Source of the DNA: a virus
Reading direction: 5' to 3' (one strand)
IMG/VR virus record: IMGVR_UViG_3300025736_000045
Span: 1 to 46,724 of that record
DNA: 46,724 bases
Below are positions 11,212-43,695 of the stretch, piece after piece. Under the pieces are notes generated by a model that was not told the DNA's origin, made no database searches, and saw only the letters and a program-made list of their open reading frames with translations. The position numbers and the translations under genes are program-made. Numbering within the stretch: the stretch's first letter is position 1; each line of letters starts with the position of its first letter.

Positions 11212-11293
11212 GAGGGCGGTATGTTATGAGGGACAGTGTGCCTCTGCTAACGCAGGCAAAATTCACACAGGTTCAAGTCCTGTTGCCGCCCTC
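11212..11293 (+). ncRNA. tRNA-like RNA: 10-bp stem stacked on a canonical T-arm
   Basis: GAGGGCGGTA (11212-11221) pairs with TGCCGCCCTC (11284-11293), one G-U pair included. Its 3' strand directly abuts a T-arm with stem ACAGG/CCTGT and loop TTCAAGT (11267-11283). The 45 bases between hold CTGC-TAAC-GCAG (11244-11255) or, alternatively, TGCCT/AGGCA around a ten-base loop, but no normal seven-base anticodon loop, and no CCA is encoded. The span matches a tRNA, so this is a degenerate tRNA or a relative of the element at 9539. Confidence 0.6.
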
Positions 11294-14293: not shown

Positions 14294-15652
14294 ATGACTG
14301 CAAAAACAAAGACTCAGTTTTTTGATGGGTACAAGATGGCGGAAGTTTATTTTTTGTGTTCTCTTTTAAATTGTGATAGGACGCACATAGAGAATATGAC
14401 CGAACTACCGCCTGAAGTATTCAGAAGCGATATGTTCAAAGACATATATATATTAGCCATGAAGCAACTGTATGATGTTGGCGACGTAGATATAAGTTTA
14501 ATATCAACAGAACTTAAAGATAAATATACAACGGTATCTTCAACTTTAGGTTCAATAATGAGATACGAATGTCTGTCGTTTAACGTCAGACTGTATGCTA
14601 AGAAACTTAAAGATTACCGGTTCTGTTTATCTTTTCACGAATTGGCGTCTTCAATATCGCCATCGTCAAGAGAGGGGCTTATCCATAATGCTGAAAAGCT
14701 GATTGACAAATGGAGAACAGTTGATGAAGAGTTTAATATGTCAGCCTTGATTGAGGACGCCATAAATGTTGTACAAGAGGCTAGCAAAAAAAGTAACCTG
14801 TTAACCGGAGTAGAGATTGTTGATGAAATCCTCGGTGGTTACAGAAAAGGTCATGTCACTGTTATAGGCGGTAGACCGTCAAACGGTAAGACAGCTTGGA
14901 TGGTAACAACAGCGAATAACCTGTTGAAAGCAAAGAAGAGAATCCTTATAGAGACAATAGAAATGACAGCTGAAGAGGTCGTGAACAGACTTGTCTCTAT
15001 GAGGACGGGTATTACATATCAACAAATCCATACAGGAGACTTTGAAGATGTTGACTGGAAAAAGTATGGGGAATGTGTTTATTCTTTAAAAAAAGAAGAG
15101 CTTATAGTTTATGATAAAAATATTAACTCTTCAAATATTATTTCTCATATAAAGAAATATCGACCTGACATTGTGTTTGTAGATTTTATACAAATACTGT
15201 ATGACCAATACTATGACGACACCAGACGAAGTGCACAGATAGGCGAGACAATGAACAAATTTAAAAACATAGCCAAGAATGAAGACGTTTCTATTGTCGT
15301 TATGAGCCAGATACGAAGACCACCCGAATATACCAAAGATATACCACGACCAAAATTGTCAGACCTTAAAGAATGTGTGATTAAGGGAACAATTGTTGGT
15401 GGTGAAAAAATTGAAGACATTGTTAAAAATAAATTACTGATAAAGTTAAAAACAGTAAATTTAAAGACAGGAGGAATTGAATATAAATATCCAGTTAATT
15501 ATATAGATAGAGGACAAATGAACTGTTATCAGGTAAAAACAAGCTCGGGCAAGACGATTACTATAAGCGACAAAACCCCATTGTTTACAGGCAAGGAATG
15601 GAAAACAGTTGACAAACTCTCTGTTAATGATAGGATAGTTATTGAAGAATGA
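14294..15652 (+). CDS. dnaB: DnaB-type replicative helicase, N-extein plus split-intein N half
   Basis: Residues 1-360 are a DnaB helicase: a helical N-terminal domain, Walker A GRPSNGKT (193-200), Walker B in IVFVDFIQ with D297, and VVMSQIRRP. The frame then leaves the helicase at SDLKE in the motif normally reading SDL-R/K-E-S-G-S, enters Cys361 and continues as a 92-residue intein N segment (CVIKGTIVGGEKIEDIV ... DRIVIEE) before stopping. The missing helicase end lies at 16326-16529. Protein trans-splicing would restore a helicase of about 427 residues. The usual block-B His is not evident; the segment reads ISDKTPLFT. Confidence 0.92.
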   Translation: MTAKTKTQFFDGYKMAEVYFLCSLLNCDRTHIENMTELPPEVFRSDMFKDIYILAMKQLYDVGDVDISLISTELKDKYTTVSSTLGSIMRYECLSFNVRLYAKKLKDYRFCLSFHELASSISPSSREGLIHNAEKLIDKWRTVDEEFNMSALIEDAINVVQEASKKSNLLTGVEIVDEILGGYRKGHVTVIGGRPSNGKTAWMVTTANNLLKAKKRILIETIEMTAEEVVNRLVSMRTGITYQQIHTGDFEDVDWKKYGECVYSLKKEELIVYDKNINSSNIISHIKKYRPDIVFVDFIQILYDQYYDDTRRSAQIGETMNKFKNIAKNEDVSIVVMSQIRRPPEYTKDIPRPKLSDLKECVIKGTIVGGEKIEDIVKNKLLIKLKTVNLKTGGIEYKYPVNYIDRGQMNCYQVKTSSGKTITISDKTPLFTGKEWKTVDKLSVNDRIVIEE

Positions 15653-15676
15653 GCTGACAGTGTGGGGGTTTTTTTT

Positions 15677-16243
15677 ATGACATATATTATTGGTGATACA
15701 CCTTGGAATAAAGGAAAGAAAATACAAACAAACACAGGAAGAACTCATTTTAAAAAAGGGTTCATTCCTTGGAATAAAAATAAAAAGACAAAAATTACCC
15801 CTGCTATAAAATTAGCATGGGAAAGAAGAAGGGGTGTCTCCATGCCAAAACCAAAAGGTTTTTCAGAAACTATGAGGAAAGTTAATCCGCCACATGGCAG
15901 AAAAGTCCATGGTGGGTATGTTCTTATTTATAAACCCAACCACCCAACCAGCAGAAAAAAACCACCAGATTATGGATATGTTTACGAACATCGGTATGTT
16001 GTGGAAAAAGCATTAGGCAGATATTTAAAATGCGGCAGAGGTAATAACTACGAACAAATACATCATTTGAATGGAGATAAAGTTGACAATAGATTAGAAA
16101 ATTTAATATTATGTTCCAGTGCAAAAGAACACAATAGAATACATTATCTTATGGAAAAATTTGTTTTTGAAATGATAAAAAACGGAGAGGTAGTTTATGA
16201 CGAAGAAAAGAAAATTTTTGTTAGAAAAAATAACAGAGATTAA
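15677..16243 (+). CDS. Free-standing HNH homing endonuclease, 188 residues
   Basis: Two NUMOD3-like modules (DTPWNKGKK and FIPWNKNKK, about residues 7-35) precede an HNH core: EH at 104-105, IHHLNGDKVDNRLENLIL at 128-145 and EHNRIH at 151-156. The ATG at 15677 has GGGGG upstream; GTG 15662 is an in-frame alternative. The gene lies exactly between the two split-intein helicase genes, and its end overlaps the second by 47 bases. It should cut intein-less dnaB alleles and spread the fractured locus. Confidence 0.88.
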   Translation: MTYIIGDTPWNKGKKIQTNTGRTHFKKGFIPWNKNKKTKITPAIKLAWERRRGVSMPKPKGFSETMRKVNPPHGRKVHGGYVLIYKPNHPTSRKKPPDYGYVYEHRYVVEKALGRYLKCGRGNNYEQIHHLNGDKVDNRLENLILCSSAKEHNRIHYLMEKFVFEMIKNGEVVYDEEKKIFVRKNNRD

Positions 16244-16529
16244 AGCTGTCGGCAAAAAAGAATGTTATGATTTAACAGTACCTGACAACCACAATTTTTT
16301 TGCAAATAATATTCTTGTTCATAATTCGGGTAGTCTGGAAGAATCAGCTGACAGTTGTATCTTGTTACACAACAATTATCTGTATTCTTTTGACCATAAA
16401 GATTACGGAAAGATAGAAGTGGCTATAGCGAAGAACAGGCACGGCAGGACAGGAGCAACAACGTTAAGTTGGTATCCTGAGATAATGATGTTTGGTCAGA
16501 AAGTTATAACAATAGGTGGGCATGATTAA
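16197..16529 (+). CDS. dnaB: Split-intein C half plus DnaB C-extein, 110 residues
   Basis: Residues 1-43 are an intein C segment: KKECYDLTVPDNHNFFANN is block F and ILVHN is block G, ending in His-Asn. Ser44 is the +1 residue and starts the helicase end SGSLEESADSCILLH. This joins exactly to SDLKE of the upstream gene to recreate the DnaB motif SDLKESGSLEE. The rest (KIEVAIAKNRHGRTG) contains the conserved arginine-finger region. GGAGAGG inside the HNH gene is its ribosome site. Confidence 0.92.
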   Translation: MTKKRKFLLEKITEIKAVGKKECYDLTVPDNHNFFANNILVHNSGSLEESADSCILLHNNYLYSFDHKDYGKIEVAIAKNRHGRTGATTLSWYPEIMMFGQKVITIGGHD

Positions 16530-41840: not shown

Positions 41841-42698
41841 CTAATAGCCTGTATACGCAGACGCCGTTTCCCGGTTTCTTGTAAACACATAAGCCGGCTT
41901 AACCGGTTGAATCCGAACATGGTCAAACAACACAGTTGTAACATATCTTAACCCATCAAACAAATGGTCATAATAAAAATCTTTAATCGGTTTATCATCT
42001 ATACCTTTAACATACCCACCCATAAACCCGGATACTAGAATCGGACACCTCTCAGAGTCTACCTTTAACCTGACCATAGTATCTTTCCCAACTTGCATCG
42101 GGTTAACCAGAGCTCGGATAAGGTTGATACCAGTCATAATTTCTAACACTTTATATTTAATTCTAATCTTAAAATCGTGTCTCAAGATATCAGCCGTTGA
42201 CCGTTCAGACTGGTCATTCGCATGAGAAACAGCCGGGTCTCCGGCATCTTTAAATGAACATCCGGGAAACAGTTCTTTCGACACTTTCTTAACCATAGAC
42301 GCAAAGTTTTGAATAATGATATTGTTACCAAACAACTCAGCCAACACGTTCAACCCCCCATTCCCATCAAGTTGAACCCAGACACAAGCTGGATGCCGGT
42401 AGCCGAAGTCCCAACCTCTCCAGATATCCCGATACGGGTTATGTTTAAGTTTGACAACATTGCTATCCATAGAGAACTTATCATAAACCCTAGCCCCTTC
42501 GGTCTTAGTAAAATCTAACTCCATCTCTTGCCGCCACTTATCTTCAGAATCATAAGTCGCCCGCACATCATCTGCCCATTGACTTGTTTTATTCGGGTCA
42601 GCTGAATAATGGAGGAAAACAACTTTAAACTTGTTATTCTCGTTTTCCTTTACATGCAACCCTTTAACTTCTTCTTTACAACCATCTACAATTATCAT
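41841..42698 (-). CDS. terL: Large terminase, nuclease-domain half (TerL-C), 285 residues
   Basis: RGWDFGYRHPACVW gives the first metal-binding Asp of the RNase-H-like terminase nuclease. KDAGDPAVSHAND gives the second, and YYDHLFDGLRYV the last acidic residues. The N-terminal 75 residues (KFKVVFLHYSADPNKTSQWA, WRQEMELDF) are the normal linker between the ATPase and nuclease parts. The frame opens with its own ATG coupled by ATGA to the preceding 99-residue gene. It must work together with the separate ATPase half at 42994-43695. Confidence 0.88.
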   Translation of the reverse strand: MIIVDGCKEEVKGLHVKENENNKFKVVFLHYSADPNKTSQWADDVRATYDSEDKWRQEMELDFTKTEGARVYDKFSMDSNVVKLKHNPYRDIWRGWDFGYRHPACVWVQLDGNGGLNVLAELFGNNIIIQNFASMVKKVSKELFPGCSFKDAGDPAVSHANDQSERSTADILRHDFKIRIKYKVLEIMTGINLIRALVNPMQVGKDTMVRLKVDSERCPILVSGFMGGYVKGIDDKPIKDFYYDHLFDGLRYVTTVLFDHVRIQPVKPAYVFTRNRETASAYTGY

Positions 42699-42994
42699 TG
42701 GATTCCTGTTGAATGATGTCTTGAATACGTGTTTAACAATTCATCTAACATATTGTTTCTAGTCTGCCCACCTTCTAACGGACCACCACCTTGCATCTTG
42801 CCAACGCCAGCAGCCGGAGCCATACCAGCCGGAGCCATTTGACTTTGTACAGGAGCCATAAGCTGACCAGCCCCCGCACCAGCAGCAGGATACCCAGCCG
42901 GGCTATTAGCAGCGTTAGAATATATCTGGCTAATCATATCTGGTTGAACTAAACTCATAGGGTCTTGCTGTCGATTATTTGAAAACCCGTTCAT
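42695..42994 (-). CDS. Low-complexity protein lying between the two terminase halves, 99 residues
   Basis: It has AGGAGG upstream and overlaps TerL-N (TAATG) and TerL-C (ATGA), so it is translated between them. The sequence is rich in Ala, Gly, Pro, Met and Gln (SPAGYPAAGAGAGQLMAPVQ) with polar helical ends (SLVQPDMISQIY, NNMLDELLNTYSRHH). It has no intein, HNH or intron features. It could be a small virion protein or a linker or partner of the split motor. Confidence 0.65.
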   Translation of the reverse strand: MNGFSNNRQQDPMSLVQPDMISQIYSNAANSPAGYPAAGAGAGQLMAPVQSQMAPAGMAPAAGVGKMQGGGPLEGGQTRNNMLDELLNTYSRHHSTGIQ

Positions 42995-43695
42995 TAATCG
43001 TCCTCCTTCTTAACATCATGAACTAACCTATAAAACAAATTTCTTTTCCCATTAGGAGTTGACACCCCAACTAACCGCCCGCCACCTTCAAGTGTCGCAT
43101 TCATCGCTGCATACGTTTCTTCTGCCCGTTCCTGAAAACTCCATTCATCACACATAATCGCACTAGCCGTATAACTTCTAACCGCATCACTATCCTGTGA
43201 CAACCCGGATATCTCAGATTCCATTGTTGGAAAACTAAGTTTAGGCGGTTTATTGGCAAGTTTATGTCGAATCTTAGCTTTTGGCGGTAACCGGTCATAC
43301 ATAAATTTGACTCTACTAAGAAGAGATAACTGTCTGGCTAACCCAGCGTCATCTTCTTTTTTAGATATAAAATATATTATCTGTCCTTTATACTGAGTAG
43401 CTAACCATAAGTGTAACGCACAGAACAACCAAGAGACAATCATCTGGCGAGATTTGACTACTAACATCATACTGCAAGTCAACCATTCTTTGATAAGGAC
43501 TTTGATATAATCCTGTTGCGGGAACCGTTTTATCGGGCACCCATGGTCATGGGGGTCTAAAGTGTAACACAAGTCAAACACAAATTCATAAGGGTCGATA
43601 ATATTAGCCGCCTGCCCGACTTTTGCTCCTAACATATTGGCAACTTCTTGACCGAAATTTATATCTTTAATATCCGATACATTGGTCTTAACCAC
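42994..43695 (-). CDS. terL: Large terminase, ATPase-domain half (TerL-N), 233 residues
   Basis: Walker A-like MLVVKSRQMIVSWL (a deviant type seen in terminases), Walker B AIMCDEW with catalytic Glu, and the coupling motif VSTPNGKRN define the packaging ATPase. A Gln-bearing adenine motif (FPQQDYIKVLI) precedes it. The protein stops shortly after the coupling motif at VHDVKKEDD, where an intact terminase would continue into the nuclease. With the 285-residue half the sum is about 518, a normal TerL length. Confidence 0.88.
   Translation of the reverse strand: MVKTNVSDIKDINFGQEVANMLGAKVGQAANIIDPYEFVFDLCYTLDPHDHGCPIKRFPQQDYIKVLIKEWLTCSMMLVVKSRQMIVSWLFCALHLWLATQYKGQIIYFISKKEDDAGLARQLSLLSRVKFMYDRLPPKAKIRHKLANKPPKLSFPTMESEISGLSQDSDAVRSYTASAIMCDEWSFQERAEETYAAMNATLEGGGRLVGVSTPNGKRNLFYRLVHDVKKEDD

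What the first reader, a model, noticed from the sequence alone, without database searches (positions are those of the whole stretch)
15374..16325. Fractured dnaB: split intein halves with a free HNH endonuclease gene between them
The helicase breaks at SDLKE/SGSLEE. The first gene continues into a 92-residue intein N segment from Cys361 and stops. An HNH gene with NUMOD3-like modules follows. The next gene begins with 43 residues of intein C segment ending in VHN before Ser. Fractured genes with split inteins are known from environmental phages, where the inserted endonuclease was described as Vsr-like; an HNH enzyme in that slot is, to my knowledge, a less described variant. All three frames are packed with the HNH 3' end carrying the ribosome site of the C half.
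Basis: partly seen in the sequence, partly recalled or inferred. Interest (0 to 1): 0.85.

Follow-up and report, generated by a model that had tools for sequence, protein, structure and literature searches.

The report
Phage helicase gene fractured by split intein
In this environmental phage the replicative helicase gene is broken in two; each piece carries half of a self-joining protein (a split intein) and a selfish DNA-cutting gene of the HNH kind sits between them, a rarer version of a known arrangement, with a short copy of the helicase sequence just before the cutter gene that may switch that gene off.

Summary
DnaB is split at SDLKE^SGSLEE: ORF 14294-15652 ends in a 92-aa intein N half, ORF 16197-16529 begins with a 43-aa intein C half, and an intact HNH_3 endonuclease gene (ATG 15677-16243) lies between. 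Both halves match intein profiles; joined, they match DnaB inteins best. This is a Dassa-type fractured gene, most likely reassembled by trans-splicing. HNH in the slot is a minority occupant, not unique: of the fractured loci I collected, 19 carry Vsr-like enzymes, several GIY-YIG, one LAGLIDADG, and HNH recurs in a split DnaE (L221) and probably a split ribonucleotide reductase (L200). The one published 'HNH' case I found (phage MIJ3) has no HNH match and looks Vsr-like. Particular to this locus: (i) an 18-nt direct repeat (17/18) puts a copy of the dnaB C-extein sequence at the N-half stop, 15 nt before the HNH start, like the homing-site-like operators of T4 intron endonucleases; (ii) N half and HNH share one frame, separated only by a TGA made by the repeat's single mismatch; (iii) the near-universal block B histidine is threonine. 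No close relative, empty site or second assembly was found; splicing, homing and repression are untested.

The parts
14294..15373 (+). DnaB N-extein (360 aa; DnaB N domain, Walker A/B, up to SDLKE)
   Evidence: Pfam DnaB_C 8.1e-38 over residues 170-360; phrog_19 4.3e-46
15374..15649 (+). intein N half, 92 aa, Cys1; block B reads ISDKT instead of TxxH
   Evidence: Pfam PF14890 1.5e-4; alignment to same-site DnaB inteins
15644..15661 (+). 18-nt copy (17/18) of dnaB C-extein sequence spanning the N-half stop; candidate operator or insertion footprint
   Evidence: 17/18 match; 0 of 3000 shuffled sequence pairs reach it
15677..16243 (+). HNH endonuclease gene (188 aa from ATG; GTG at 15662 is an alternative start); WNK-repeat N terminus, HNH_3 nuclease domain with IHHLNGDKVDNRLENL
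   Evidence: Pfam HNH_3 5.7e-8, phrog_10730 8.3e-16, alignment
16197..16325 (+). intein C half, 43 aa, block F YDLTVPDNHNFF and block G NNILVHN; overlaps the HNH gene by 47 nt; GGAGAGG about 7 nt before the ATG
   Evidence: Pfam PF14890 8.7e-10; TIGR01443 1.7e-8
16326..16529 (+). DnaB C-extein (67 aa, starts Ser+1, carries the KNRHGRTG segment)
   Evidence: Pfam DnaB_C profile positions 196-254, 1.8e-9
16338..16355 (+). partner copy of the 18-nt repeat in the C-extein (+13 to +30 from the splice junction); candidate HNH recognition sequence

Best explanation
This is a fractured gene. A DnaB-type mini-intein at a known DnaB insertion site (E^SGS) has been split at its usual endonuclease position, and a separate HNH homing endonuclease gene occupies the gap. 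The helicase is made as two proteins whose intein halves find each other and trans-splice, rebuilding a 427-aa DnaB. The HNH enzyme cuts intein-less dnaB alleles of co-infecting phages and so spreads the whole intein-HNH cassette. Shown by sequence: the split, both intein halves, the HNH gene and its intact motif, the shared low G+C of the intein and HNH. Inferred: trans-splicing, homing, and that the enzyme reads the dnaB C-extein.
For: Intein and DnaB profiles on both halves, with the DnaB profile continuing without a gap across the junction. The joined intein is closest to DnaB inteins. Contiguous inteins at the same E^SGS junction occur in a phage contig (L071) and in cyanobacterial, proteobacterial and other genomes. 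Cys1, block F Asp/His, block G His-Asn and Ser+1 are present. The break separates the ATPase core from the KNRHGRTG segment (the DnaB arginine-finger region, from general knowledge), so a function for the unspliced halves is unlikely. The C half has its own ribosome site and start right after an in-frame TAG, as expected of a real gene rather than a frameshift error. The same layout recurs in more than 25 viral loci with other occupants. Intein halves and HNH share GC3 0.23-0.26 against 0.35-0.39 in the exteins. The HNH motif is intact.
Against: The block B histidine, kept in all 16 same-site inteins aligned, is Thr here. Loss of this residue usually abolishes splicing, although bulky -1 residues rescue it in a DnaB intein (PMC6333167) and -1 is Glu here. 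No intein-less or contiguous relative of this dnaB was found and no second assembly of the junction. The N half is below the curated cut-offs of both intein libraries.
Confidence: 0.78

Rival explanations
1. Genes in pieces without splicing: the intein has lost activity (block B His to Thr) and the two DnaB fragments work as a non-covalent complex, held together by the intein halves, as Aeromonas phage Aeh1 NrdA does without an intein.
For: Missing block B histidine. Aeh1 precedent (PMC3653736, PMC2988022). TerL in the same genome also appears to be encoded as two separate ORFs with no intein seen.
Against: All other splice residues are kept, and the C half is strongly conserved (NNILVHN^S). 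The break falls inside the RecA-like core of a hexameric ATPase. Bulky -1 residues compensate for the histidine in a DnaB intein.
Confidence: 0.12
2. UGA readthrough: the N half and HNH are in one frame, so some translation yields a DnaB-intein N-HNH fusion of about 650 aa; the arrangement is an N-half-endonuclease fusion recently separated by one stop.
For: Same frame with one TGA, and the TGA comes from the only changed base in the 18-nt repeat. N-half plus GIY-YIG fused in one ORF exists in L182 (Pfam) and by sequence in L127 and L200.
Against: TGA ends 16 of 49 likely genes in this window, so it is an ordinary stop. HNH has its own ATG with a G5 tract upstream. Sharing a frame has a one-in-three chance.
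Confidence: 0.06
3. Assembly or sequencing error: a normal in-frame intein with embedded HNH was broken by base errors.
For: Only one assembly of the junction was found.
Against: Two separate errors would be needed (a stop and a frameshift), and they would have to create a start codon with a ribosome site at the natural split point. Similar layouts are common in other contigs.
Confidence: 0.03

Closest known systems
Fractured genes with split inteins (Dassa et al. 2009, NAR 37:2560; known to me from memory and from citing papers, full text not held)
   Same: Conserved replication enzyme split by an intein whose halves flank a free-standing endonuclease gene, in environmental phages
   Different: Occupant is HNH_3, not the Vsr-like family; host gene is DnaB at E^SGS; block B His absent; dnaB-derived repeat at the slot
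L221 (IMG/VR): DnaE split intein with HNH_3+NUMOD3 ORF overlapping both halves
   Same: HNH endonuclease ORF in the slot of a split intein, overlapping the neighbouring half genes
   Different: Host gene DnaE; no extein repeat at the junction (11/18 at best)
Pseudomonas phage MIJ3 PolB split intein with orf154 (PMC6892783)
   Same: Reported as an HNH enzyme between split intein halves
   Different: orf154 has no HNH match; it scores weakly with the Vsr-like slot enzymes
Contiguous DnaB inteins at E^SGS (for example L071, L078, L092, L094) and PaV-LD/Npu/Ssp DnaB inteins
   Same: Same insertion site (first group) and closest intein sequences
   Different: One polypeptide; TxxH present; LAGLIDADG insertion (L071) or no endonuclease
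T4 intron endonucleases I-TevI, I-TevII, I-TevIII with homing-site-like operators (PMC2988022)
   Same: Sequence resembling the host-gene target lies directly upstream of the endonuclease ORF (15/20 for I-TevI; 17/18 here)
   Different: Those are intron-encoded; here the gene sits in a split intein and neither target nor operator has been shown

Membership tests
Fractured gene (split intein plus free-standing endonuclease) | conserved enzyme gene interrupted by both intein halves in separate ORFs | tested here: met
Fractured gene (split intein plus free-standing endonuclease) | endonuclease ORF between the halves | tested here: met
   HNH_3 5.7e-8
Fractured gene (split intein plus free-standing endonuclease) | trans-splicing of the host protein | not testable with these tools
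   needs co-expression
Vsr-like slot endonuclease family | homology to Vsr-like slot enzymes | tested here: not met
   profile built from 11 slot enzymes scores 8 others at E 6.9e-6 or better but the window protein at E 5
Class 1 intein | Cys/Ser1, block F Asp/His, block G His-Asn, +1 nucleophile | tested here: met
   alignment
Class 1 intein | block B TxxH | tested here: not met
   ISDKT in place of (A/V)TxxH; hence filed as an intein by profile and other blocks, but non-canonical
HNH homing endonuclease | HNH nuclease motif | tested here: met
HNH homing endonuclease | NUMOD3 DNA-binding module (common, not obligatory) | tested here: not met
   no Pfam NUMOD3 match up to E 1; N-terminal WNK repeats resemble NUMOD3-bearing L002
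HNH homing endonuclease | cleavage of the empty site and gene conversion | not testable with these tools
   no purified protein, no empty allele found
T4-type autorepressing endonuclease | homing-site-like sequence just upstream of the ORF | tested here: inconclusive
   17/18 identity to the dnaB C-extein, but the homing site itself is not known
T4-type autorepressing endonuclease | overlap with the endonuclease promoter | tested here: inconclusive
   10/12 sigma-70-like site 15609-15636, but such sites are no more frequent than in shuffles
Group I intron | intron RNA in the insert | tested here: not met
   no Rfam family reached its gathering score in the window

The most novel reading that the evidence does not exclude
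The HNH enzyme recognises the dnaB C-extein sequence GAAGAATCAGCTGACAGT; the near-identical copy 15 nt before its own gene is an operator it binds without productive cutting, so the endonuclease represses itself inside a fractured gene, and the copy's single changed base also supplies the stop codon that ends the split-intein N half. The copy would record how the endonuclease gene entered the intein, and the intein would splice without a block B histidine.
Probability: 0.25. Interest if true: 0.72.

Novelty: new variant of a known kind. Interest (0 to 1): 0.5.

Why it matters
How an endonuclease gene gets into an intein and turns it into a split one is still open. This locus carries a candidate trace, a copy of the host-gene target at the insertion boundary that also makes the stop codon, and it names an 18-bp sequence to test by gel shift and cleavage. 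It also shows that the slot is taken by several endonuclease classes, and offers a natural DnaB-type split intein lacking the block B histidine for mechanism and protein-engineering work.

Tried and rejected
Stop-codon recoding: rejected, TGA ends 16 of 49 likely genes. Group I intron: no Rfam match. Close relatives or an empty dnaB site: none in viral contigs; identical portal genes in three other contigs show the phage recurs, but by their lengths and the portal's position those contigs should not reach dnaB. The junction itself was not found again. PDB homologue of the HNH protein: none. Single-sequence AlphaFold of the HNH protein: useless, pLDDT 38. Extein repeats at the slot of 20 other fractured loci and of L221, L200, L126, L189, L115, L116, L160, L182, Amona, VPALA and MIJ3: best 14/18, background, so the repeat is particular to this locus. 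The phage MIJ3 'HNH' precedent was checked and not upheld.

Full report
What is there. The 46.7-kb window is a virus record. ORF 14294-15652 encodes DnaB up to SDLKE (residue 360) and then 92 residues beginning with Cys. ORF 16197-16529 begins with 43 residues ending in NNILVHN and then SGSLEE. The DnaB_C profile runs 3-197 on the first and 196-254 on the second, so removing the 92 and 43 residues restores an unbroken helicase of 427 aa. The intein profiles match both segments, and the joined 135-aa intein is closest to DnaB inteins of known structure (4o1r, 1mi8). Between them lies an HNH endonuclease gene, with HNH_3 in Pfam at 5.7e-8, several HNH PHROGs, and the intact sequence IHHLNGDKVDNRLENL aligning with HNH enzymes of other phages.

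Gene packing. The N half ends at TGA 15650-15652. The HNH gene most likely starts at ATG 15677 after a G5 tract. The HNH gene ends at 16243 and overlaps the C half by 47 nt; the C half has GGAGAGG just before its ATG and an in-frame TAG just upstream. The N half and the HNH gene are in the same frame, so the only stop between them is the TGA. TGA is a normal stop in this genome (16 of 49 likely genes).

Intein anatomy. Twenty-four genome stretches and one phage contig match HN^SG(S/T)xE(E/Q)xAD, so E^SGS in DnaB is a known intein site; those with both ends in hand are contiguous. Against 16 of them plus the neighbouring-site PaV-LD intein, this intein keeps Cys1, block F and block G but reads ISDKT where all others have TxxH. 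[quoted passage not shown] In the Ssp DnaB intein, however, bulky residues at -1 rescue a His-to-Ala mutant, and natural CDC21-1 inteins lack the histidine (PMC6333167). Here -1 is Glu. Splicing is therefore likely but not certain.

How common the arrangement is. The C-half search and a ribosome-site-plus-HN^SG pattern brought in many split loci. Among occupants scored against a profile built from 11 of them, 19 are Vsr-like (16 IMG/VR loci, MIJ3, VPALA, KP13-7), though 11 of these 19 match by construction. GIY-YIG is found in L031 and L189 by Pfam and in L115 by sequence only; it is fused to the N half in L182 (Pfam), and by sequence in L127 and L200. LAGLIDADG is annotated in Pectobacterium phages Amona and Abuela. 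A C5 methyltransferase sits in L008. HNH_3 plus NUMOD3 lies between the halves of a DnaE intein in L221, and a weaker HNH match lies in a ribonucleotide reductase slot in L200. Phage MIJ3's published 'HNH' occupant (PMC6892783) has no HNH match and carries the EYNGLYWH...FDNEW pattern of the Vsr-like group, with a weak profile score (6.9e-6). HNH in the slot is thus a recurrent minority, and I found no published upheld case; the founding paper was not available to me, and it may list some.

The repeat. GAAGAATGAGCTGACAGT (15644-15661) spans the N-half stop and ends 15 nt before the HNH ATG. GAAGAATCAGCTGACAGT (16338-16355) codes EESADS in the C-extein, 13-30 nt past the splice junction. The single difference turns TCA (Ser) into TGA (stop), in the same reading frame. 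None of 3000 shuffled pairs reaches 17/18. Elsewhere in the window one other site matches the extein flanks at 17/18, a T-rich one, so chance placement within 90 nt of the junction is roughly 0.002-0.01 after allowing for the choice of regions (my estimate); this is a post hoc observation. In 31 other fractured loci checked the best value is 14/18. T4 intron endonucleases carry just such a homing-site-like operator upstream of the ORF (I-TevI 15/20; [quoted passage not shown] PMC2988022). A promoter-like site lies just upstream (15609-15636) but is not significant. The copy may be an operator, a footprint of how the gene entered the intein, or chance; the first two both predict that the HNH enzyme binds this 18-bp sequence.

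Origin. Intein halves and HNH share low G+C at third positions (0.23-0.26) against 0.35-0.39 for the exteins, consistent with a cassette acquired together. The N-terminal WNK repeats of the HNH enzyme match a NUMOD3-bearing phage HNH protein (L002) that stands among other phage genes with no intein seen beside it, so the enzyme looks like a shuffled free-standing phage HNH enzyme that settled in the intein.

Limits. One assembly, no close relatives, no empty allele. Splicing, cutting, homing and repression are inferred.

Noticed in passing
window 41841-42698 (-), 42695-42994 (-), 42994-43695 (-): The large terminase appears to be in two pieces: an ATPase-like half (by sequence) and a nuclease half (PHROG terminase match) separated by a 99-aa Gly/Pro/Ala-rich ORF; no intein seen.
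   Followed up: partly
L008:2937-3983: The slot of a split-intein DNA polymerase B holds a C5 cytosine methyltransferase (Pfam 1.3e-49) instead of an endonuclease.
   Followed up: partly
L221:1255-2067 (-): HNH_3 plus NUMOD3 ORF between the halves of a split intein in DnaE, overlapping both half genes.
   Followed up: partly
L182:2446-3612, L127, L200:986-2170: Ribonucleotide reductase N half, intein N half and a GIY-YIG enzyme fused in one ORF, with the C half in a separate ORF.
   Followed up: partly
L107 (Pectobacterium phage Amona) 2534-5644: Helicase split by an intein with a LAGLIDADG ORF overlapping the C half gene; block B His present.
   Followed up: partly
L116:3619-4671 (-): Split-intein slot occupant with a weak match to phage endonuclease I and a PD-(D/E)XK-like EVKG motif.
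   Followed up: no
LR588166 126270-127952: Phage MIJ3 orf154, annotated HNH homing endonuclease III, has no HNH match and looks Vsr-like.
   Followed up: yes
window 11214-11293: tRNA-like gene with an unusual two-base anticodon call.
   Followed up: no
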